This document shows, piece by piece, positions 6,128-51,744 of a DNA stretch of 64,000 nucleotides. The notes beneath the pieces are model-generated. The model was given only the letters and a program-made list of their open reading frames with translations, was not told the origin of the DNA and did no database searches. Every line of letters starts with the position of its first letter. The stretch's first letter is position 1. The stretch lies in NCBI GenBank assembly GCA_038040445.1, contig JBBPIG010000002.1, positions 186,001 through 250,000 of the forward strand. The letters run 5' to 3'. Origin of the DNA: Acidobacteriota bacterium (GTDB lineage Bacteria; Acidobacteriota; Blastocatellia; UBA7656). The position numbers and the translations under genes are program-made.

Positions 6128-6653
6128 TGATCAGGAAAGCACATGGCTCAGCGTCGAGTTGAGGTCGTCAAACAGGATTGGCTTGAAGATCACCTCGCTC
6201 ACAAGCTCACGGTTGTCGTCAACGGTCTCAGCCGGAACGGCGTGGCCGGTTATCAATACCACCATTACACCTGGCCAGCGGCGCACTTCGCTCGCCACCG
6301 CCCAGCCTTCCATCTCGGGCATCGAAAGATTGGTGAACACCAGATCGAATTGGTCACGCTCGAGCTTGGCAAGAGCCTCGTGCCCGCTTCCCGCATGATC
6401 GGTGCGATGACCAGCCGAGTTCAGCATGCCTACCAGCGCTTCGCGAACCCGCTGATCGTCGTCTACCACGAGCACATTTGCCGACCGCGGGCGAGCCCTG
6501 CGATCGCGCTTCGCTTGCTTCTGAACGCTATCGGCTACCGGCAGCCTTATGGTGAACGTAGTGCCTCGGCCCGGGCTGCTGCGCGCTTCGATGCGGCCGC
6601 CGTGCCGTTCGATGATGCTGTAGCTCACCGCCAGCCCCAGCCCTATTCCTCAG
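6128..6653 (-). pseudogene. truncated copy of the hybrid-kinase 3' end (HATPase tail plus REC)
   Basis: The translation from 6652 down ([15 protein letters not shown], then a whole REC domain ending VLS) parallels the last about 175 residues of the kinase at 9865-14373, in the same orientation. It has no N-terminal kinase part. The phosphoacceptor Asp of the full copy (LVFTDLSMPE) is Asn here ([10 protein letters not shown]), and one Arg of RRRWPG is missing. A 127-base stretch I compared by eye differs at 11 positions. Upstream it runs straight into the maturase remnant at about 6650. Judged a dead fragment, though an internal ATG at 6628 could still give a 165-residue product. Confidence 0.8.
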
Positions 6654-7135
6654 CCGTGTCTTGATCCGTGGCCGTGGCCCCTCGAAATGATCCAACAGGT
6701 CTTTGAAGCCTTGCCAGTTTGAAACTCAAACGTTGGCTTCCTCTGTTCAACCACTCCAGCAGAATCTCCATTGCCCTGCCGTAGAACTCTTGGATTCCGG
6801 CAGCATACCCTTTCACTCCAGAGTAGTTGTAATACCCACGGAGCTTCCGGTTCAGCAGCGGGAAGAGCACACGGAGCCTGACGTTGCGCTTCTGCTTGCA
6901 CCACTGGGTGAAGTTGGCGATCGAGGAGTTTCTTTCTGGAAGTTCGGCGCGCTACGTGAGGCTTGCCCGCGCGGTCTTTGTCCCAGAGAAACTCGAACCC
7001 GAGAAAGTCGAATCTCGATGAGCCTGGCTTGTTGCTTCGACTGAAGTGAATCACTCTCGTCTTGTCAGCAGCCAGGTAGAAACCTACGTTTTCGAGCCGA
7101 AACGGGTCAAGCGCCTGTTTGATTAAGCGGCGTGG
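6650..7135 (-). mobile_element. group II intron reverse transcriptase/maturase remnant
   Basis: Three minus-strand frames read in order give the C-terminal part of a group II intron-encoded protein: LIKQALDPFRLENVGFYLAA, SSRFDFLGFEFLWDKD, RRTSRKKL, then IANFTQWCKQKRN, LFPLLNRKLRGYYNYSGVKG, EWLNRGSQRLSF, then NWQGFKDLLDHFEGPRPRIK. The frame changes near 6945 and near 6720 (one extra A before the NWQG segment), so it cannot be functional. The RT catalytic YADD part is absent. The reading frame collides with the truncated kinase copy at 6650. Confidence 0.85.
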
Positions 7136-7160: not shown

Positions 7161-7517
7161 TCACGCCTGAGTTGGCAAGCTTATCTCGGGCGCAATGTGT
7201 GCCTCCGCGACACACGGCCATTTGCGAATAACATCGACATAATCCGCAGGCGATTCGCCCGGCGGCAGAATCACCTGAACATAGCGTTGTAACTCCCGTT
7301 CGTGCTTCGACAGCTTCGACGGGTCGGCCCCGGCGAGAGTCGGCACCTTGTAGACTATTCTGCTGTTCTTAGGCAGATCGCCACGTGGTGTAAACTTCTC
7401 GCCAGAGTCCGACTCGAAGACGCGGCGGCTCCGGTCAAGCCTCCATCCGGTCTTCAATTTCAAATCCACAGGAATCCTGATCTTGCTATCAGAGGGCAAC
7501 GTCACCGGTGGAATCAT
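7161..7517 (-). CDS. small propeptide-like partner of the downstream-paired subtilase
   Basis: A 118-residue soluble protein without signal peptide, 16 bases after the stop of the subtilase on the same strand. Its C-terminal third (RYVQVILPPGESPADYV, VIRKWPCVAEAHIAPEI) aligns by eye with the subtilase's own pro-region (GFVQVVPKNS, NRKEAVWKAYVAPRPVP). This suggests an I9-like inhibitor or chaperone module supplied separately, but the function is inferred only. No stronger family is recognised. It borders the maturase remnant. Confidence 0.65.
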   Translation of the reverse strand: MIPPVTLPSDSKIRIPVDLKLKTGWRLDRSRRVFESDSGEKFTPRGDLPKNSRIVYKVPTLAGADPSKLSKHERELQRYVQVILPPGESPADYVDVIRKWPCVAEAHIAPEISLPTQA

Positions 7518-7533
7518 CTCAGCACCATCCAGA

Positions 7534-9027
7534 TCAGACTTTCTTCATCGCCATCGGGAGATTCGGCAGCGGACCAATGTTCTGCGTCAACGGCACGCCT
7601 GGACCGGGTTCTTGGGGGGTGCCCGTATTCATAAGGAACTTTCTGACTTTGTGCGGCGGGAGTGGCGAGCCATTCTTGGCTTTCGCCCGGCCTTGAAGAC
7701 ACGCGACGGCTCCAGTGATGATCGGTGAAGCGCTTGAAGTGCCCGAGAATCGAAGAGTGTACCAGGAGTTCTCTGAAGCGCCGCCTTGTGCGTCACCATA
7801 TCCCAGCGTCGTAACATGCCAACCCCAGCCTTGGACGTTGACGATCTTACCATAGTTCGAAAAGAAGATGCGCGAACGCGGTACGCCGAGCGAAGTGTAC
7901 GAGGGGAGCGACGCTCCGAATCCATCAAAGTCAACGTGATTCGCCGGAGGAACACCTGCGCCTACTACTATCGCGCCGCTGTCTTTTTGCAAACCGGTTC
8001 CATTAAAGATCGCCAGATCGAAGTTCTCATCTCCGTTGCCCGCCGCTTCAACGACGGTAATCCCCTTAGCGGTGGCTGCCACAATGGCAGAAAAGATGTC
8101 GCCCCAGAACTGCATAGCAACGAATTTTCCGTTTGGCCCGGTGGCCTGCAACTCGATGAGGATTACGTCCCCGGCCTTCAAGAAATTCGCCGCGTTATTG
8201 ATTGCAGCGGCCGTATTGAACACTCCGCCGACTATAGCCGAATGAACGACGGCCTTTGCCTGGTGGCTGATGCCAACTGTCCCTTTGTTGTTGGGTATGG
8301 AAATCATCTCGCCCAGCACCGCGGTGCCGTGGTTTCGCCAGCCCAGATCATCGATCACGGTGCCGCCGATGAGTTGAATGCCCGAAGGCAAATCTTCGTG
8401 CTGCCGGTTCCAGTTGCCTTCGATATCGCAGATTGTGATGCCCTTGCCTTTCGCTCCTGCGAGGCTCCATACTTCGGCGGCTCCGATGCCATTTGGGGGC
8501 GCGTAAAGATAGCCCTGTGCCGGTTCGAAGTTGCGGCTTCCGGGGGCTGTACCGGCAGGCATCGCGGGCACGGGACGCGGTGCGACGTACGCCTTCCAGA
8601 CCGCCTCCTTCCGGTTAAGCTCTCTTGCGATCTTGCCGGCATCGCGGCTGTTCTTTGGAACGACCTGGACGAAACCGCTTTGAATGAACTCAGTGTCCAT
8701 TCCTTTGTCCTTGAACTTGTCAGGGTCGGGCTCCGGAGGCAAAGCCGCCGCGATTCCAACCCGCGCACGAACCGCGGCTGATTTCAAGCCGAAATGGGAG
8801 CGTATGGCCGCGACATCATACTTCGCCAGAACCTCGTTAAGCTTCTCCGACTGCGGAGCGGCGGCGGCAGGCGCCGCAAATCTCGACGCTGTGAATGCAA
8901 CAGGGCTCTCGTAACGCAGTTCGACCACGACGTAATCAGGGACGTCGGGCGCTTCAAACCTGGTGCCGACAAACCCCTCTTTGGTCTGCTGGCCTGTTTG
9001 TACCTTGGCTTTCTGTTTCTTTGGCAT
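7534..9027 (-). CDS. cytosolic S8 subtilisin-like serine peptidase
   Basis: A 497-residue protein with the catalytic triad of family S8: Asp in ITICDIEGNW (about 210), His in WRNHGTAVLGE (about 240), Ser in FSGTSSASPI (about 440), plus the oxyanion Asn in EAAGNGDE. There is no signal peptide (MPKKQKAKVQTG), and a pro-like region precedes the catalytic domain (VQVVPKNSRD..., about 122-155). AAGGAG lies 6 bases before the ATG. It is followed at 16 bases by a small protein resembling its pro-region, suggesting a peptidase/inhibitor pair. It lies in the island flanked by duplicated kinase tails. Confidence 0.88.
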   Translation of the reverse strand: MPKKQKAKVQTGQQTKEGFVGTRFEAPDVPDYVVVELRYESPVAFTASRFAAPAAAAPQSEKLNEVLAKYDVAAIRSHFGLKSAAVRARVGIAAALPPEPDPDKFKDKGMDTEFIQSGFVQVVPKNSRDAGKIARELNRKEAVWKAYVAPRPVPAMPAGTAPGSRNFEPAQGYLYAPPNGIGAAEVWSLAGAKGKGITICDIEGNWNRQHEDLPSGIQLIGGTVIDDLGWRNHGTAVLGEMISIPNNKGTVGISHQAKAVVHSAIVGGVFNTAAAINNAANFLKAGDVILIELQATGPNGKFVAMQFWGDIFSAIVAATAKGITVVEAAGNGDENFDLAIFNGTGLQKDSGAIVVGAGVPPANHVDFDGFGASLPSYTSLGVPRSRIFFSNYGKIVNVQGWGWHVTTLGYGDAQGGASENSWYTLRFSGTSSASPIITGAVACLQGRAKAKNGSPLPPHKVRKFLMNTGTPQEPGPGVPLTQNIGPLPNLPMAMKKV

Positions 9028-9309: not shown

Positions 9310-9693
9310 TCAAAATGAGTGTCGCCCCATATACCCTTCCATTGCTTCTTTTGGGACGAAGCTCTCCAGCGGGAAGTCTTCACCAAACGCTGCCCTGCTG
9401 TATTGTTCTATCCCTACCGGCTCCTCGAGCATCGGATCATAGACTAGGCCCTCGCAGCAGCACACATAATGCTTTGTCCAGGTGATACTGCCGTAATACT
9501 TCTTCGGAATGAGAGGGTGGTGAAATCGATATCCTGGTCTGACCGTTTCCTTATGCAAGCACGCAATGAAAGGCTGATGTCCAACATCGATCAGCAATCT
9601 GGCAATATCACGTGCTATTGCCAAACAGTTGGCTTCATAGCTGTCTGCGAGCAGGCGTCGTTTGTCGGTTAAGTAACTTAACAGCGATGACAT
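9310..9693 (-). CDS. small papain/transglutaminase-fold protein
   Basis: A 127-residue protein with a probable catalytic Cys in a helix (SYEANCLAIARDIARLL, Cys23), a His after a beta strand (TWTKHYVCCCEG, about 80) and Asp in GLVYDPMLEEPV. The order Cys-His-Asp and the GLVYDP segment recall papain-like or transglutaminase-like domains used both in peptidases and as effector or toxin tips. No signal peptide and no clear Shine-Dalgarno site are seen. It is the last gene of the island between the kinase-tail copies. Activity is inferred. Confidence 0.55.
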   Translation of the reverse strand: MSSLLSYLTDKRRLLADSYEANCLAIARDIARLLIDVGHQPFIACLHKETVRPGYRFHHPLIPKKYYGSITWTKHYVCCCEGLVYDPMLEEPVGIEQYSRAAFGEDFPLESFVPKEAMEGYMGRHSF

Positions 9694-9851: not shown

Positions 9852-9864
9852 CGAAGCGTTCAGA

Positions 9865-12800
9865 TCAGGAGAGCACCTGGCTCAGCGTCGAGCTGAGATC
9901 GTCAAAGAGGATTGGCTTGAAGATCACCTCGCTCACAAGGTCGCGATTGTCGTCAACGGTCTCAGCCGAAACGGCATGCCCGGTTATCAATACCACCTTT
10001 ACTCCCGGCCAGCGGCGGCGCACTTCGCTTGCCACCGCCCAGCCATCCATCTCGGGCATCGATAGATCGGTGAACACGAGATCGAATTGAGCATGCTCGA
10101 GCTTGGCAAGAGCCTCGTGCCCGCTTCCCGCATGATCGGTGCGATGACCGGCCGAGTTCAGCATGCCTACCAGCGCGTCGCGAACCCGCTGATCGTCGTC
10201 CACCACCAGCACATTTGCCGATCGCGGGCGAGCCCTGCGATCGCGCACAACTTGCTTCTGAACGCTGTCGGCTACCGGCAGACTTATGGTGAACGTAGTG
10301 CCGCGGCCCGGGCTGCTGCGCGCTTCGATGCGGCCGTTGTGGCGTTCGATGATGCTGTAGCTTACCGCCATCCCCAGTCCTATGCCGCTCGTGCCCTTGG
10401 TCGTGAAGAACGGCTCGAATACGTGCTCACAAACGTCGCTGGTCATTCCAATTCCGCTGTCGGTCAAGCTCGCGTGGATGAAGCCGTCTTTTAGGTCAGT
10501 GGCGATTCGCAGGCGGCCTCCTTGCGGCATCGCGTCCAGCGCGTTGAGGATGATGTTTACGAACACCTCGCGCAACTCCGACCCCGACCCTCTCACGCCG
10601 GGAATTGTGTGAAGGTCCAGGTCGACGTCGTACTGCAGGCCGCGCGCTTGCGCTTCGTCGCACCATCGAGCCTTGGTGAGCGTGGTCGAATCTTGAATCA
10701 GTTGATTGACATCAATCGCCTCGTTCAACCCTTCGTTTTGCTGAACTCCAAACGCCTGAATGCGCTTCACCGTTTGGGCGCCGTCTAGCGCGGCCTGCTC
10801 GATGATATCGATGCGCTGGGCCAGCCCTTCATCCGGACAATCGCGCTTTATCAGTTGAGCGTGTCCCAGTATCGCGGCAAGTATGTTATTGAAGTTGTGC
10901 GCTACCCCGGACGCCAGTTGACCCAGCGCGCGCAGCTTATCAGCCTGGGCCGCGCGCTCGCTCGCCACGCGGTCCTCGGTGATGTCGCGAGCAATCGAAA
11001 GGATGCTGGTAACTCGCCCTTCGTCGTAGATCGGCGTGTGGGTGAGCAGGAGCAGCCGGTTCTCGCCGCTCTTCCTAGCGACGTTCATTTCGAACGTCTG
11101 AGCTTCGCCTTCGAGCGCGCGCGTGAATCGCTCGATCGCGACCTTCTTCTGATCGCCGAAAACAAACAGCCGATAGTCACCCGATTCAAGTTCCTGCCGC
11201 GAGTATCCGGATTGCTTGATCAACTGTTCGTTAAACCAGATCAGGCGGCCTTCAGGCGAGAACGCAAGTATCGCGTCATTGGCGTGCTCGATCAGCTTGA
11301 CGAGGAAGCTGCGCTGCTCGCGGGCGACCGCCTCCGCGGCTCGCAGCTCTGACAGATCTCTTACTATGCAGACCGCGCCGCGCGGACCGGCATGATCGCC
11401 GTTATCGCGCAAGCTATCGCCGAGGCCAAAATGGTTTCTGGAGCCATTTGTGACTGGAGAGATGGTAACCAGGACGGGCCGCGACAACCGCTCTGGCACA
11501 AGCTCAAAGGTGGCGGGTCTTCCTGTCTTCATCACCTGCGCGACGCGGCACGTTTCGCCCTCAACACCTTGCAGGAGGGTGCAACACCTCCGGCCGATCA
11601 ACTCGCGCACGTCAGCGCCTTCAAATGCCGCAGCCGCCGCATTGATGCGCCGCAGCACCCCGTTTTGATCGAAGATGAAGATTCCATCGCTAAGCGCATC
11701 GAAGGTGGCTTCCCACTGTACCTTGCCGTGCGAAACCAGCTCGAACAGCTCCGCGCGCTGCAGCGCGATGACGACCTGGGCGGCGGCGGCGCGCACCACT
11801 TCCGCTTCGTCGTCGGTCCAGTTGCGCGGCCCCGACTTCATGATAGCCGTGATCACCAGGCGCGGCGCGCCTTCGTAGGAGAGCCGCGCCGACATGAACG
11901 AGTGGGCGCCGGCCGCGCGAAGCGATTCCTGAGCGCGCCTATCCAGGCGCTCGTCCTCTTCGGAGTTGCAGCACAGGATCACGTCGTTTCCCACGAGGTC
12001 GGCGAACGTCATCAAGTCTTCACTGCGGTATGCCGTATCAGGCCTACAAACCTTCCCGTCGCTGTATTCGCATTCGGCTTTCCATTCCCTGCTCAGCTCA
12101 TTGAACCGCGTTACGAGAATTCTGTCCGCCGCAAGATGCTCCCCGAGCTCGCGCGCTACAACCGGGAATATTTCATCCAGCCGGTTTGACTGGTTGATGC
12201 CGTGAATGATGTGACTGATAAGCGCCGCGCGTTCGGCCGACTGCTTCGTCTCCTGAAACAGATTGCTGTGGCTGACTGCGACCTCGACCTGCGCAACGAC
12301 CGTTTCTATTAGCGCAATATCGCTTGCGGTCCACTTGCGAACGCGGTCGGTCTGATTGATCGAGAGACCGCCCCAACATGATCCATTGACAAATATCGGA
12401 CACACGATCTGCGAAAGGGTGAGTGGCTCGGTCTGCCACGTTCTAACCGTCGATGCCAGATCGGGGTATGCCGCCGCGAAAGCGCGCACGTCGTCTATGA
12501 TCAGCGTCCGCCGGGCCTCAAGCACGTAATTGCCAATATAGTCGTTGGCTGATGTCCAAACGTGACTTAATGACAGAGCCGGGTCGCTCAAATGCTCGGC
12601 GACGATGACGCTCTCATTTCGGATCAACTTGCGGAAGTAGGTTCGGTTCGCTCCCAGCGCGCGGCCGACTTCTTGCACCGCCACCCGTAGGGTCTCTTGC
12701 AGGTCCAGCGAGCGTCGAATGGAAGCGACGATTTGATTGACCAGAGAGGCGCGCTGGGCCGATTCGCGAACCTCGCGATACAGCTCAGCCTGGCGTATGG

Positions 12801-14373
12801 CCACGGCCGCTTGATCAGCAACCGATTTTACAAGATCGACTTCCCATGGCGTCCACGTGTGGGGTTGGTCGCAGTGATGAAGGCTCAGTATTCCGATCGG
12901 CTTGCCATGGACACGAATTGCCGTCGTGAGAATCGCCTTCACGCTGCCGGCCGCGATTCGGATTCGCAGCGGAGCAAGGGTCGGGTCGTTCGAAGGATCG
13001 CTTACCGCCACTGGTCTATCCGACGAGAGTACCGACTGCAAAAACGGATTGTTCACCGTTTGAATCTCGTTCAACACTGGTGGGCGGGCAGAGCAGCACT
13101 CGGCCACGTACACGTGGGTGACGGGAACCATCTCGGGCAAGGGGCTAGGAAGCAGCGCCAGGCGGCAGCGGCAAACGGAAAGCGCGACGCCCAGCTCGTT
13201 GACGATCGCTTGCAACACCGCATCCGAATTGAGCGAGCTGTGAATGGCTGAACCGATCTTGCTGATGAGCGCATCGCGTCGCGCTGCCTCTTGCGCTTCG
13301 CGATAAAGCTCAGCCTGATAGAGAGCCACCGCAGTCTGTTCGGTCACCAACTCGAGGAGCTTCATCTCATCTTTCGAGAACACCCGCGGGTTGTCGAACT
13401 GCTCGAGCGCAATTGTGCCTACGGTGTGTCCGTCGTAGCTGATCGGAGCCAGCGCTATTGCGCGCACGCCGAGCCGTACGCAGACCGCGCGCATTATGGG
13501 ATCGCTCTCGTTGGTGTCGGGTACGTCTATGATCTGGCCCGAAAGCAACTGGGCCAGCAGCGGGCTCCCTTCAAGGTCGAGCTCGCTGTCTTTCAGGGTC
13601 GGCACCAGCACGCTTGATCGGTACTCGGCTCGAGCAAGAAAGCGGGAGTCTCCGCTCGAGTCGCCGGCGCGGTGCTTATAGATCACGACTCGGGTCATTT
13701 TTAGCGTCGTCCCGATGCCGTCGACGGCGAGCTTCAATATTTCATCAACGCGGGCCGCGCTCCTGATGGCGGTCAACAACCGGTTTATGAGTGCTTCGCG
13801 GCCGGCGGCGCTTGTTGCCCGCTCCTGTGACTGAAAGTGGTGTATGGTGAGGCTCAGCGTAGACGCCGCGGCTTGCGCGAGGTGCTTGTCTTGAGCGGAC
13901 CAGCGCCGCTTGCTGCCCTGATAGAGAAGGACCGCGCCGGCGGTTTCTGAATCGATCACAAGCGGAACTAACAGGATCGACTTGATGGCCGACTCTTCCC
14001 CTCTATTGGCTCCGCGCGCGAGCCACCGGCTCACCCGTGGGTCTAATGTCGCATCCGATATTTCCAGCACTGAAGCGTGCGAGCCGACGTCCCGCGCAAT
14101 CTCGATGTCAAGCTGTCGAAGCTTCTCCCTTTCGACGGGGCCGATGCCGCTCGCGCAGTAGTCCCCCGTTCGCCTCATTCCGCTTTCATCTCGAATGAGG
14201 ATGGCTACGCGCTCAAGCCTTAGTGTGCCGCCGATCTCGTCGGCAGCGCTGCGCAGCGCGGTGCTTAAGTCGGATGATGACTGAGCAAGCGCAACTATCT
14301 TGTCGATAAGCGCGCATCCGCGCGCCTGATCTTCGCGGCGCGAGAAAAATCGGTTCTTGAAAGAGAGTCTCAT
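9865..14373 (-). CDS. five-GAF, two-PAS hybrid sensor histidine kinase with REC domain
   Basis: A 1502-residue soluble protein with no membrane segment. Five GAF-type repeats (about 20-180, 195-355, 370-540, 550-715, 725-885; several end in ...VAVALYQAELYRE-like helices), two PAS domains (about 895-1000 and 1030-1150), HisKA with the phosphorylatable His in ASGVAHNFNNIL, HATPase with N box (VNIILNALDAMP) and G boxes (DSGIGM, GTSGIGLGM), and a C-terminal receiver with DDD and LVFTDLSMPEMDG. It senses cytoplasmic signals and can pass phosphate to its own REC. It follows a REC-HD-GYP gene on the same strand, a likely partner. Its 3' end is duplicated at 6128-6653. Confidence 0.92.
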   Translation of the reverse strand: MRLSFKNRFFSRREDQARGCALIDKIVALAQSSSDLSTALRSAADEIGGTLRLERVAILIRDESGMRRTGDYCASGIGPVEREKLRQLDIEIARDVGSHASVLEISDATLDPRVSRWLARGANRGEESAIKSILLVPLVIDSETAGAVLLYQGSKRRWSAQDKHLAQAAASTLSLTIHHFQSQERATSAAGREALINRLLTAIRSAARVDEILKLAVDGIGTTLKMTRVVIYKHRAGDSSGDSRFLARAEYRSSVLVPTLKDSELDLEGSPLLAQLLSGQIIDVPDTNESDPIMRAVCVRLGVRAIALAPISYDGHTVGTIALEQFDNPRVFSKDEMKLLELVTEQTAVALYQAELYREAQEAARRDALISKIGSAIHSSLNSDAVLQAIVNELGVALSVCRCRLALLPSPLPEMVPVTHVYVAECCSARPPVLNEIQTVNNPFLQSVLSSDRPVAVSDPSNDPTLAPLRIRIAAGSVKAILTTAIRVHGKPIGILSLHHCDQPHTWTPWEVDLVKSVADQAAVAIRQAELYREVRESAQRASLVNQIVASIRRSLDLQETLRVAVQEVGRALGANRTYFRKLIRNESVIVAEHLSDPALSLSHVWTSANDYIGNYVLEARRTLIIDDVRAFAAAYPDLASTVRTWQTEPLTLSQIVCPIFVNGSCWGGLSINQTDRVRKWTASDIALIETVVAQVEVAVSHSNLFQETKQSAERAALISHIIHGINQSNRLDEIFPVVARELGEHLAADRILVTRFNELSREWKAECEYSDGKVCRPDTAYRSEDLMTFADLVGNDVILCCNSEEDERLDRRAQESLRAAGAHSFMSARLSYEGAPRLVITAIMKSGPRNWTDDEAEVVRAAAAQVVIALQRAELFELVSHGKVQWEATFDALSDGIFIFDQNGVLRRINAAAAAFEGADVRELIGRRCCTLLQGVEGETCRVAQVMKTGRPATFELVPERLSRPVLVTISPVTNGSRNHFGLGDSLRDNGDHAGPRGAVCIVRDLSELRAAEAVAREQRSFLVKLIEHANDAILAFSPEGRLIWFNEQLIKQSGYSRQELESGDYRLFVFGDQKKVAIERFTRALEGEAQTFEMNVARKSGENRLLLLTHTPIYDEGRVTSILSIARDITEDRVASERAAQADKLRALGQLASGVAHNFNNILAAILGHAQLIKRDCPDEGLAQRIDIIEQAALDGAQTVKRIQAFGVQQNEGLNEAIDVNQLIQDSTTLTKARWCDEAQARGLQYDVDLDLHTIPGVRGSGSELREVFVNIILNALDAMPQGGRLRIATDLKDGFIHASLTDSGIGMTSDVCEHVFEPFFTTKGTSGIGLGMAVSYSIIERHNGRIEARSSPGRGTTFTISLPVADSVQKQVVRDRRARPRSANVLVVDDDQRVRDALVGMLNSAGHRTDHAGSGHEALAKLEHAQFDLVFTDLSMPEMDGWAVASEVRRRWPGVKVVLITGHAVSAETVDDNRDLVSEVIFKPILFDDLSSTLSQVLS

Positions 14374-50388: not shown

Positions 50389-51744
50389 ATGCAGCCACTC
50401 TCAGCTTACTGTCCTGTCTGCCGGCGTGAGGTAGACGTCGAGCAGATCGCCGGTTCGGGCGCCGTCCACGACTCGCTCCACCCTCTGCTGGCGGTCAATA
50501 TGCACTCATGGGAGCCGGGCAAACCGATTTGCATAGATTGTGTTCTCCGATACTCGAGGCTCCACGACGAGCTCTGCGCCGCCTTTCCGCAATTCGCCGC
50601 GCAGGAGCTCAAGGTCGTGCCTACACCTATGCGGCTCGACGCGCCGGACGAGGTTCGCGGGCGCGGCGTCACGATCGCTTTCCTCGACTCAGGCTTCTAT
50701 GGGCATCCCGATCTCGCATTGCCGCGCGATCGGGTGCTGAAATACGTAAACCTGGTTGAGCGGGCAAAACCGAGCGACCTGACCACTCCGCAAGCTTCTT
50801 CGTGGCACGGGATGATGACCTCAGTAGTCGCCGCCGGCAACGGGTATCTGTCGGGCGGGCTCTATCGAGGCATCGCGTCCGAAGCGAACCTTGTGCTAGT
50901 GAAAGTGGGGGTGTCCTCGCGCGTGCGTCACACCGACATAGCGCGCGGGCTTCGCTGGGTGATCCGGCATCGCGAAGAGTTCAACATTCGAATCGTGAAC
51001 ATCTCGGCGGGAGGCGACTACGAAGCAAGTTACCTTTCCGACGAACTGTCGAGAATTGCGGAAGACGCGACTCGCGCAGGTTTGCTTGTTGTCGCAGCCG
51101 TCGGCAACTCCGGCCATCTGGCGAATCACCCGGTACTGCCGCCCGCATCGGCGCCTTCGGTGATAGCAGTAGGCGGACTCGACGATAAGAACAATCTCGA
51201 CTTCGGGGACAACGATATGTATCGCTCGAGCTACGGTCCGACGATTGACGGCCTGCAGAAGCCCGAAGTCATCGCGCCCGGCATCTGGATAGCCGCCCCG
51301 ATACTGCCCGGCACTCCGACCGCCGAACAAGCGATGCTCCTGTCGCAGCTTGAAAACGCAGCCGACTCAGCGTTGCGCGAGATAATCAGGCAGCACCCTG
51401 GTGTGGACGAAGACCTCGACCACGCAACGGAACTTGCGCCTTACCTCTTGCGTCAGGTGGTGTGGATCAAGATACGCGACAACAAGGTGATCAGCGGTCA
51501 CTACAAGCATGTCGACGGGACCAGCTTCGCCGCGCCGATCGTTTCATCCATCGCGGCTCAAATGTTAGAAGCCGTTCCCGACTTGAAGCCCCACGAAATC
51601 AAACTCGCATTGATCAGGACCGCGGTAAGGCTTCCTCACGTTGAAGTCGACCGGCAGGGATGGGGAATGGTGAATCCGCGAGCCGCAATCGCCGCAGCTA
51701 TGGCGATGCGCGAAGCGGGGCATCACCCGGTTTCTCCACATTGA
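50389..51744 (+). CDS. cytosolic S8 subtilase with N-terminal zinc ribbon
   Basis: A 451-residue peptidase with an N-terminal CPVCRREV...CIDC zinc-ribbon-like part (about 7-55) in place of a signal peptide. Triad: Asp in IAFLDSGFYGHPDL (about 105), His in SSWHGMMTSVVAAG (about 145), Ser in HVDGTSFAAPIVSS (about 390); oxyanion Asn in AAVGNSGHL. AAGGTG is 8 bases before ATG 50389. An extra helical insert (about 330-370, AMLLSQLENAADSALREI) lies before the Ser. Presumed intracellular, so its target is likely a protein of the cell itself. Confidence 0.9.
   Translation: MQPLSAYCPVCRREVDVEQIAGSGAVHDSLHPLLAVNMHSWEPGKPICIDCVLRYSRLHDELCAAFPQFAAQELKVVPTPMRLDAPDEVRGRGVTIAFLDSGFYGHPDLALPRDRVLKYVNLVERAKPSDLTTPQASSWHGMMTSVVAAGNGYLSGGLYRGIASEANLVLVKVGVSSRVRHTDIARGLRWVIRHREEFNIRIVNISAGGDYEASYLSDELSRIAEDATRAGLLVVAAVGNSGHLANHPVLPPASAPSVIAVGGLDDKNNLDFGDNDMYRSSYGPTIDGLQKPEVIAPGIWIAAPILPGTPTAEQAMLLSQLENAADSALREIIRQHPGVDEDLDHATELAPYLLRQVVWIKIRDNKVISGHYKHVDGTSFAAPIVSSIAAQMLEAVPDLKPHEIKLALIRTAVRLPHVEVDRQGWGMVNPRAAIAAAMAMREAGHHPVSPH

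What the first reader, a model, noticed from the sequence alone, without database searches (positions are those of the whole stretch)
7161..9027. Cytosolic subtilase with a detached propeptide-like partner
The 118-residue downstream protein shares the block VQV...A..I....W..A..AP...P with the pro-region of the 497-residue S8 peptidase. Neither has a signal peptide. A free-standing copy of a pro-domain next to an intracellular protease suggests a protease/inhibitor switch, which could be a conflict or programmed-proteolysis system.
Basis: partly seen in the sequence, partly recalled or inferred. Interest (0 to 1): 0.65.

Follow-up and report, generated by a model that had tools for sequence, protein, structure and literature searches.

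The report
Subtilase with a stand-alone propeptide-like partner
A bacterial protein-cutting enzyme with no export signal is always encoded next to a small separate protein that resembles the enzyme's own built-in safety cap, which suggests a protease kept in check by a detachable inhibitor; such pairs are known in a few eukaryotes and in two bacterial cases, but this widely scattered version appears undescribed.

Summary
Taken alone, the 118-aa and 497-aa proteins show only an insignificant match (BLASTP E about 2). But the small protein's last 42 residues match the pro-domain ends of the wider S8 clade by profile comparison (94.7% probability, E 5.6e-8, 0 of 200 shuffles). The gene pair is rare and patchy, about 1 genome in 100-300, in at least five phyla. 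It is strictly linked: all 11 cross-phylum relatives of the protease have a small gene, or in one decayed locus its remains, directly downstream. No intact small gene was found away from a protease. Neither protein has a signal peptide, the catalytic triad is intact, the small gene is under purifying selection, and the two trees are correlated. The best reading is a two-gene cytosolic subtilase module in which the small protein is a stand-alone propeptide-like regulator (inhibitor and/or folding chaperone). It works like Aeromonas ASP/ORF2, Plasmodium SUB1/SUB1-ProM and Myxococcus PopC/PopD. Docking into the active site was tested by folding a natural read-through fusion, and the result was inconclusive. 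Nothing specifically supports a conflict or defence role. New variant of a known kind.

The parts
7534..9027 (-). S8 (subtilisin-like) protease, 497 aa, no signal peptide; residues 1-163 pro-like region, 164-497 catalytic domain
   Evidence: PF00082 E 7e-13; 11 relatives at 54-78% identity in genome contigs; hydropathy of N-terminus
8563..8685 (-). end of the protease's pro-like region (residues 115-155, EFIQSGFVQVV...VWKAYVAPRPVPA), the segment related to the small protein
   Evidence: profile comparison
8425..8427 (-). catalytic Asp201 codon (CDIEGN)
   Evidence: invariant column in alignment A1; motif in 12 of 12 proteases; assignment by S8 motif, inference
8329..8331 (-). catalytic His233 codon (NHGTAV)
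   Evidence: invariant column in A1; motif in 12 of 12
8035..8037 (-). oxyanion Asn331 codon (AAGNG)
   Evidence: invariant column in A1; motif in 12 of 12
7735..7737 (-). catalytic Ser431 codon (GTSSASP)
   Evidence: invariant column in A1; motif in 12 of 12
7161..7517 (-). stand-alone propeptide-like partner, 118 aa
   Evidence: kept directly downstream of the protease in all relatives; dN/dS 0.13-0.43; AlphaFold2 pLDDT 82, pTM 0.70
7173..7292 (-). pro-domain-tail-like part of the partner (residues 76-115, LQRYVQVI...VAEAHIAPEISLP)
   Evidence: hhalign 94.7%, E 5.6e-8 against wider-clade pro-domain tails
7173..7181 (-). conserved SLP at or near the C-terminus of the partner, proposed active-site tail
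   Evidence: (S/A)LP in 9 of 11 aligned partners and the very last residues in several; active-site role is inference

Best explanation
This is a self-contained two-gene module. Gene 1 makes a subtilisin-like protease without a signal peptide that keeps its own N-terminal pro-like domain. Gene 2, translated just after it, makes a small stand-alone propeptide-like protein. SHOWN: obligate adjacency, family-level homology of the small protein's last beta-alpha-beta segment to S8 pro-domain ends, intact triad, purifying selection, correlated trees. INFERRED: the small protein folds like a subtilase propeptide, packs on the protease, and lays its C-terminal tail (...P-x-x-SLP) into the non-prime side of the cleft as a cleavage-resistant, product-like inhibitor. 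It may also help the protease fold. The protease therefore stays silent in the cell until the partner is removed, titrated or degraded, or until the protease is exported without it.
For: All 11 relatives of the protease found across Acidobacteriota, Pseudomonadota, Verrucomicrobiota, Planctomycetota and Zixibacteria carry the small gene, or in L012 its frameshifted remains, directly downstream on the same strand. In Acidobacteriota samples the genomes with the small gene are exactly those with a close (>=53%) protease relative, and 8 genomes with more distant relatives (<=51%) lack it. Profile homology to S8 pro-domain tails. The model of the small protein aligns over whole subtilisin propeptides (3cnq_P Z 4.5, 69 of 71 residues; 2z57_B Z 4.3, 65 of 65, 23% identity), though tied with unrelated folds. 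No signal peptides. dN/dS of the small gene 0.13 between two Bradyrhizobium. Tree distances correlate, Mantel r 0.62, 1 of 5,000 permutations. The catalytic domain is conserved (71% median) and the partner varies more (32%). Published precedents: ORF2, encoded just downstream of asp, puts its C-terminus in the active site and inhibits with IC50 84 nM (PMC5638518); SUB1-ProM is a stand-alone propeptide-like inhibitor encoded next to subtilisin genes (PMC6993865).
Against: The fused mature protease plus small protein gave a poor catalytic domain (pLDDT 70, pTM 0.62), and the partner's tail stayed disordered (pLDDT 44), so docking is not supported by computation. The fold match to propeptides is not better than to ribosomal or RAM/ACT-like folds. 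No Pfam Inhibitor_I9 match. The N-terminal half of the partner has no detectable homology to pro-domains. The protease already carries its own pro-like domain, so a second inhibitor is not obviously needed. A Pro at the end of the Tk-subtilisin propeptide weakens binding (Uehara 2013, cited in PMC10580911), so a conserved C-terminal Pro might mean weak inhibition.
Confidence: 0.6

Rival explanations
1. External folding chaperone in the first place (ASP/ORF2-like): the partner is needed to make active protease, and inhibition is a side effect.
For: Same gene order as asp-orf2, with the chaperone gene just downstream of the protease (PMC5638518). Subtilase propeptides are usually both chaperone and inhibitor. 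Translation directly after the protease favours co-folding.
Against: ASP lacks a propeptide, whereas this protease keeps a conserved ~150-residue pro-like region, so it does not obviously need an external chaperone. No sequence relation to any PDB chain below E 0.7. G1062 keeps an intact partner beside a frameshifted protease gene, which is uninformative.
Confidence: 0.25
2. PopC/PopD-like control of export: the partner binds the full-length, uncleaved protease in the cytoplasm and blocks its secretion until a stress signal causes the partner to be degraded.
For: PopC is a 50.8-kDa subtilase with an N-terminal part of no recognised domain, no signal peptide, secreted full length, and held back by PopD until PopD is degraded (PMC6434023). 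Size and layout here are similar.
Against: No Myxococcus sequence could be reached with these tools, so homology to PopC or PopD is untested. Nothing shows that this protease leaves the cell. The partner's resemblance to a pro-domain predicts active-site inhibition as well.
Confidence: 0.2
3. Conflict or programmed-proteolysis module (protease toxin plus inhibitor antidote).
For: Rare, patchy, cross-phylum distribution in unrelated contexts. A Septu-like PtuA gene lies beside L012 and an AAA_21 ATPase beside L009. No case was seen of an intact protease with a lost partner.
Against: No PADLOC model matches either protein. Most contexts show no obvious defence genes. The module is not found in viral contigs, phages or plasmids at close identity. 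Only three decayed loci bear on the loss pattern.
Confidence: 0.1
4. The small protein is the protease's substrate or a precursor peptide rather than its regulator.
For: Cytosolic subtilases next to small genes are known in peptide maturation; distant PatA/PatG cyanobactin-protease matches of the catalytic domain.
Against: The partner is a folded alpha/beta domain (pLDDT 82) with conserved core and C-terminus, no leader/core layout, no modification enzymes seen nearby, and homology to pro-domains.
Confidence: 0.06
5. The resemblance is chance or convergence of a short beta-alpha-beta motif, and the neighbour has an unrelated function.
For: The two window proteins alone give E about 2; ferredoxin-like folds are common.
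Against: Family-level profile match E 5.6e-8, 0 of 200 shuffles, and clean ranking among 2,013 ORFs.
Confidence: 0.05

Closest known systems
Aeromonas sobria serine protease ASP and its external chaperone ORF2 (PMC5638518)
   Same: Subtilase gene with a small gene just downstream; partner inhibits; its C-terminal residues (including a Pro) sit at the catalytic site in the solved complex
   Different: ASP is secreted and lacks a propeptide, while this protease has no signal peptide and keeps a pro-like region; no detectable sequence relation between this partner and any PDB chain
Stand-alone I9-type propeptide-like inhibitors: POIA1, yeast IB2/Pbi2, Arabidopsis SPI-1, TgMIC5, Plasmodium SUB1-ProM (PMC6993865)
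   Same: Small separate gene product resembling a subtilase propeptide; SUB1-ProM gene also lies next to subtilisin genes; C-terminal tail proposed to enter the cleft
   Different: All are eukaryotic; the three classic ones lack significant sequence similarity to propeptides, whereas here family-level sequence homology is detectable; inhibition not tested here
Myxococcus xanthus PopC/PopD (PMC6434023)
   Same: Subtilase without signal peptide and with an N-terminal part of no known domain, held in a complex by a partner protein
   Different: Homology untestable with the tools at hand; PopD was not described there as propeptide-like
Bacillus intracellular subtilisin Isp1 and inhibitor IPI (BsuPI, PF12690) (PMC3901451)
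   Same: Intracellular subtilisin with a separate protein inhibitor
   Different: Isp1 has an 18-residue propeptide; IPI has an Ig-like all-beta fold and its homologues are not encoded near subtilisin genes

Membership tests
MEROPS S8 / Pfam PF00082 subtilases (the 497-aa protein) | Match to the family model above the curated cut-off | tested here: met
   PF00082 49 bits against cut-off 21.8
MEROPS S8 / Pfam PF00082 subtilases (the 497-aa protein) | Asp-His-Ser triad and oxyanion Asn | tested here: met
   CDIEG, HGT, AAGNG and GTSSASP in 12 of 12 proteases; D201, H233, N331, S431 invariant
Inhibitor_I9 / propeptide-like inhibitors (the 118-aa protein) | Match to the Pfam Inhibitor_I9 model | tested here: not met
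   No Pfam match for the window protein and no Inhibitor_I9 match in 11 family members; the clade's own pro-domains do not match it either
[quoted passage not shown]
   Model aligns over whole subtilisin propeptides at Z 4.3-4.5 but ties with unrelated ferredoxin-like folds; last beta-alpha-beta present
Inhibitor_I9 / propeptide-like inhibitors (the 118-aa protein) | Sequence homology to S8 pro-domains | tested here: met
   C-terminal 42 residues only: 94.7%, E 5.6e-8
Inhibitor_I9 / propeptide-like inhibitors (the 118-aa protein) | Inhibits a subtilase, tail in the active site | tested here: inconclusive
   Fused model uninformative: tail pLDDT 44, catalytic domain poor; needs biochemistry
ASP/ORF2 external chaperone system | Protease lacks its own propeptide | tested here: not met
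   Conserved ~150-residue pro-like region in all intact copies
ASP/ORF2 external chaperone system | Chaperone gene just downstream of the protease gene | tested here: met
   All intact loci
ASP/ORF2 external chaperone system | Partner homologous to ORF2 | tested here: inconclusive
   Profile of the partner finds no PDB chain but one at E 0.7, a streptococcal surface protein; the ORF2-ASP structure is published, but its entry was not checked by name
PopC/PopD | Subtilase without signal peptide, with a partner encoded with it | tested here: met
PopC/PopD | Sequence homology to PopC (Q1DFT5) and PopD | not testable with these tools
Bacillus ISP / IPI | Short N-terminal propeptide blocking the active site; Ig-fold inhibitor | tested here: not met
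   Pro-like region of about 150 residues; partner model is mixed alpha/beta
Known antiphage defence protein families | Match to a PADLOC-DB model | tested here: not met
   No family for either protein at E<=0.01

The most novel reading that the evidence does not exclude
A so far undescribed, horizontally scattered bacterial family in which a pro-domain-derived protein, living as a separate gene, acts in trans as the on/off switch of a cytosolic (or non-classically exported) subtilase that still carries its own pro-domain. This would be the first bacterial stand-alone propeptide-like inhibitor family with detectable descent from S8 pro-domains, and a generalisation of PopC/PopD-type regulated proteolysis across phyla.
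Probability: 0.35. Interest if true: 0.68.

Novelty: new variant of a known kind. Interest (0 to 1): 0.48.

Why it matters
Stand-alone propeptide-like inhibitors are documented almost only in eukaryotes, and the few bacterial partner proteins (ORF2, PopD, IPI) have been known as isolated cases. A conserved gene pair with traceable homology to S8 pro-domains would show how a cis-acting pro-domain can become a trans-acting regulator. It would also give a small, testable model for how bacteria keep a potent protease without a signal peptide under control. The prediction is directly testable in vitro with two small recombinant proteins.

Tried and rejected
Pairwise BLASTP of the two proteins: not significant, replaced by profile tests. 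The small family as a profile against viral contigs: no stretch conserved enough to search with. Protease profile against viral contigs: pattern matches but no relatives. The small protein in plasmids: no match. The weak small-protein hit in G234 (E 6e-4) is antisense or out of frame in a locus of alpha-amylase-like and fucosidase-like genes without any subtilase, so it is rejected as chance. Docking by AlphaFold2 on the naturally read-through fusion of the mature protease and partner (alignment A5): catalytic domain poorly predicted and tail disordered, so neither for nor against. Two earlier mixed alignments were discarded because MAFFT misplaced the partner rows. Foldseek on the partner gave no significant hit. 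The 127-aa gene upstream of the protease was considered as a third component and dropped: not seen beside other copies and absent from 28 related genomes. A conflict-system reading was considered and kept only as a low-probability rival. A search for the insertion-free site in sister genomes showed the kinase orthologue but none of the window genes downstream of it, so no clean empty site.

Full report
WHAT IS THERE. On the minus strand, 7534-9027 encodes a 497-residue S8 protease and 7161-7517 encodes a 118-residue protein that starts 16 nt after the protease stop. The protease matches PF00082 (E 7e-13) from residue 226 on; the small protein matches nothing in Pfam, NCBIfam, PHROGs or PADLOC. 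The protease's nearest solved relatives by sequence are intracellular subtilisins. Asp201, His233, Asn331 and Ser431 are invariant in the family. Neither protein has a hydrophobic N-terminal stretch (maximum 12-residue Kyte-Doolittle 0.62 and 0.21), nor do any of the relatives (protease maximum 1.1), whereas three distant clade members with obvious signal peptides score 2.0-3.4.

IS THE RESEMBLANCE REAL? Families decide the matter. A genome-wide search found 11 relatives of the protease at 54-78% identity (one partial copy, L012, at 87%) in Acidobacteriota, Bradyrhizobium, Rubrivivax, Woeseiaceae and another gammaproteobacterium, Verrucomicrobiota, a planctomycete and two Zixibacteria. Every one has a relative of the small protein, or in L012 its frameshifted remains, immediately downstream on the same strand. 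Against the pro-domain ends of ten more distant S8 relatives (Nostoc, Haloferax, Mycetohabitans, Paracoccus, a Paenibacillus plasmid, a Paenibacillus phage and four Acidobacteriota), none from this family, hhalign gives 94.7% probability, E 5.6e-8 over 42 columns, with 0 of 200 shuffles (max 16.5 against 39.7). An HMM of those tails run on 2,013 ORFs from all loci puts only clade subtilases and this family's small proteins in the first 43 places. The homologous part is the last strand-helix-strand plus tail; the N-terminal half of the small protein is not detectably related.

CONSERVATION AND DISTRIBUTION. The small protein is found in 3 of 396 Acidobacteriota (a fourth weak hit was shown to be chance), 1 of 299 Pseudomonadota, 2 of 132 Zixibacteria, 1 of 199 Planctomycetota and 3 of 118 Bradyrhizobium genomes, the centre genome of each sample included. 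Each carrier has one copy; a second partial match in G414 is a repeat beside a run of N in that assembly. In Acidobacteriota the three carriers are exactly the genomes with a protease at 53% identity or more; eight genomes with S8 relatives of 51% or less lack it. The neighbours differ at every locus outside Bradyrhizobium, so the pair is the unit. Three decayed loci are known. In G1065 a deletion of about 2.2 kb, between conserved flanks, removed the protease and the first half of the small gene. In L012 the protease lacks its pro-region and the small gene is frameshifted. In G1062 the protease is frameshifted and the small gene is intact. The small gene is under purifying selection (dN/dS 0.13 between two Bradyrhizobium, up to 0.43 for distant pairs). 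Protease and partner trees correlate (Mantel r 0.62, 1 of 5,000 permutations), and the Bradyrhizobium copy groups with Acidobacteriota, as expected of transfer between phyla. The partner evolves faster (32% median identity) than the catalytic domain (71%) and the pro-region (41%).

STRUCTURE. AlphaFold2 on 11 sequences gives the small protein a confident mixed fold (pLDDT 82, pTM 0.70) ending in strand-helix-strand and a disordered tail. Foldseek finds nothing significant. The second look aligns whole subtilisin propeptides (3cnq_P, Z 4.5, 69 of 71 residues; Tk-subtilisin propeptide 2z57_B, Z 4.3, 65 of 65, 23% identity), but at the same level as unrelated ferredoxin-like domains: compatible, not specific. 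To test docking I used the tool's read-through codes to fold the mature protease joined to the partner as the DNA encodes them. The catalytic domain came out poor (pLDDT 70, pTM 0.62) and the tail stayed disordered (pLDDT 44). This is inconclusive, and the central step of the mechanism stays inferred.

MECHANISM. The best-supported account is a stand-alone propeptide-like regulator of a subtilase that stays, at least at first, in the cytoplasm. Subtilase propeptides chaperone folding and then inhibit, with the C-terminal tail lying product-like in the cleft (PMC6993865, PMC10580911). The partner has the propeptide-type segment and a conserved tail: (S/A)LP in nine of 11 aligned sequences, and at the very C-terminus in several. 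A terminal proline would resist cleavage. It may also weaken binding, since a Leu-to-Pro change at the end of the Tk-subtilisin propeptide does so (cited in PMC10580911), which would suit a reversible regulator. Because the protease keeps its own pro-like region, a pure ASP/ORF2-type replacement of a missing propeptide is less likely, but a chaperone share cannot be excluded.

COMPARISON WITH THE KNOWN. The arrangement works like Aeromonas ASP/ORF2 (downstream gene, C-terminus at the catalytic site, inhibition with IC50 84 nM; PMC5638518), like Plasmodium SUB1/SUB1-ProM (stand-alone propeptide-like inhibitor encoded beside subtilisin genes; PMC6993865), and like Myxococcus PopC/PopD (subtilase without signal peptide, secreted full length once its partner is degraded; PMC6434023). 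Membership in none of these was established: Inhibitor_I9 is not matched, the ASP criterion of a missing propeptide is not met, and PopC/PopD sequences could not be reached. The Bacillus Isp1/IPI pair differs in fold and gene arrangement (PMC3901451). I found no paper describing this gene pair in the open library searched, which does not cover most subscription journals.

VERDICT. Observation confirmed. The inhibitor-switch idea is plausible and survives its own refutation test. The conflict idea is unsupported. New variant of a known kind, moderate interest.

Noticed in passing
window 6129-6649 and 9863-10386: A 524-nt direct repeat (91.6% identical, the 3' end of the sensor-kinase gene 9865-14373) flanks the segment holding the module, about 3.7 kb start to start, as if the module sits between a gene end and its duplicated fragment.
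   Followed up: partly
window 9310-9693 (-): 127-aa orphan ORF 283 nt upstream of the protease, same strand, with Cys, His and Asp spaced as in papain-like or transglutaminase-like domains (by eye only); no Pfam match and absent from 28 related genomes.
   Followed up: partly
window 6643-7054 (-): Broken frames that look by eye like the C-terminal part of a group II intron maturase; Pfam finds nothing, so unverified.
   Followed up: partly
L028 3609-4061 and 4016-5107 (Paenibacillus sp. 37 plasmid pART37): A clade subtilase annotated as two overlapping genes in different frames: a separate 150-aa pro-domain ORF and a catalytic ORF, either a frameshift or a pro-domain caught in the act of detaching.
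   Followed up: no
L012 6877-8127 and 8124-9011: A PtuA (PADLOC E 6e-140) and a possible HNH-type gene, i.e. a Septu-like pair, next to a decayed copy of the module.
   Followed up: partly
L050 about 6050 (G1065) against L009 5469-7660: A deletion in one Bradyrhizobium removed the protease and half of the small gene between conserved flanks; in G1062 (L049 about 6738) the protease gene carries a frameshift.
   Followed up: yes
window 50659-51666 (+), and further matches in G000: The host genome has about 20 Peptidase_S8 matches, including another 481-aa open frame inside this window.
   Followed up: no
L031 2743-4833 (Paenibacillus larvae phage phiERICV): A distant clade subtilase in a phage record, fused to fibronectin and ricin-type lectin domains and annotated as a GlcNAc-binding protein.
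   Followed up: no
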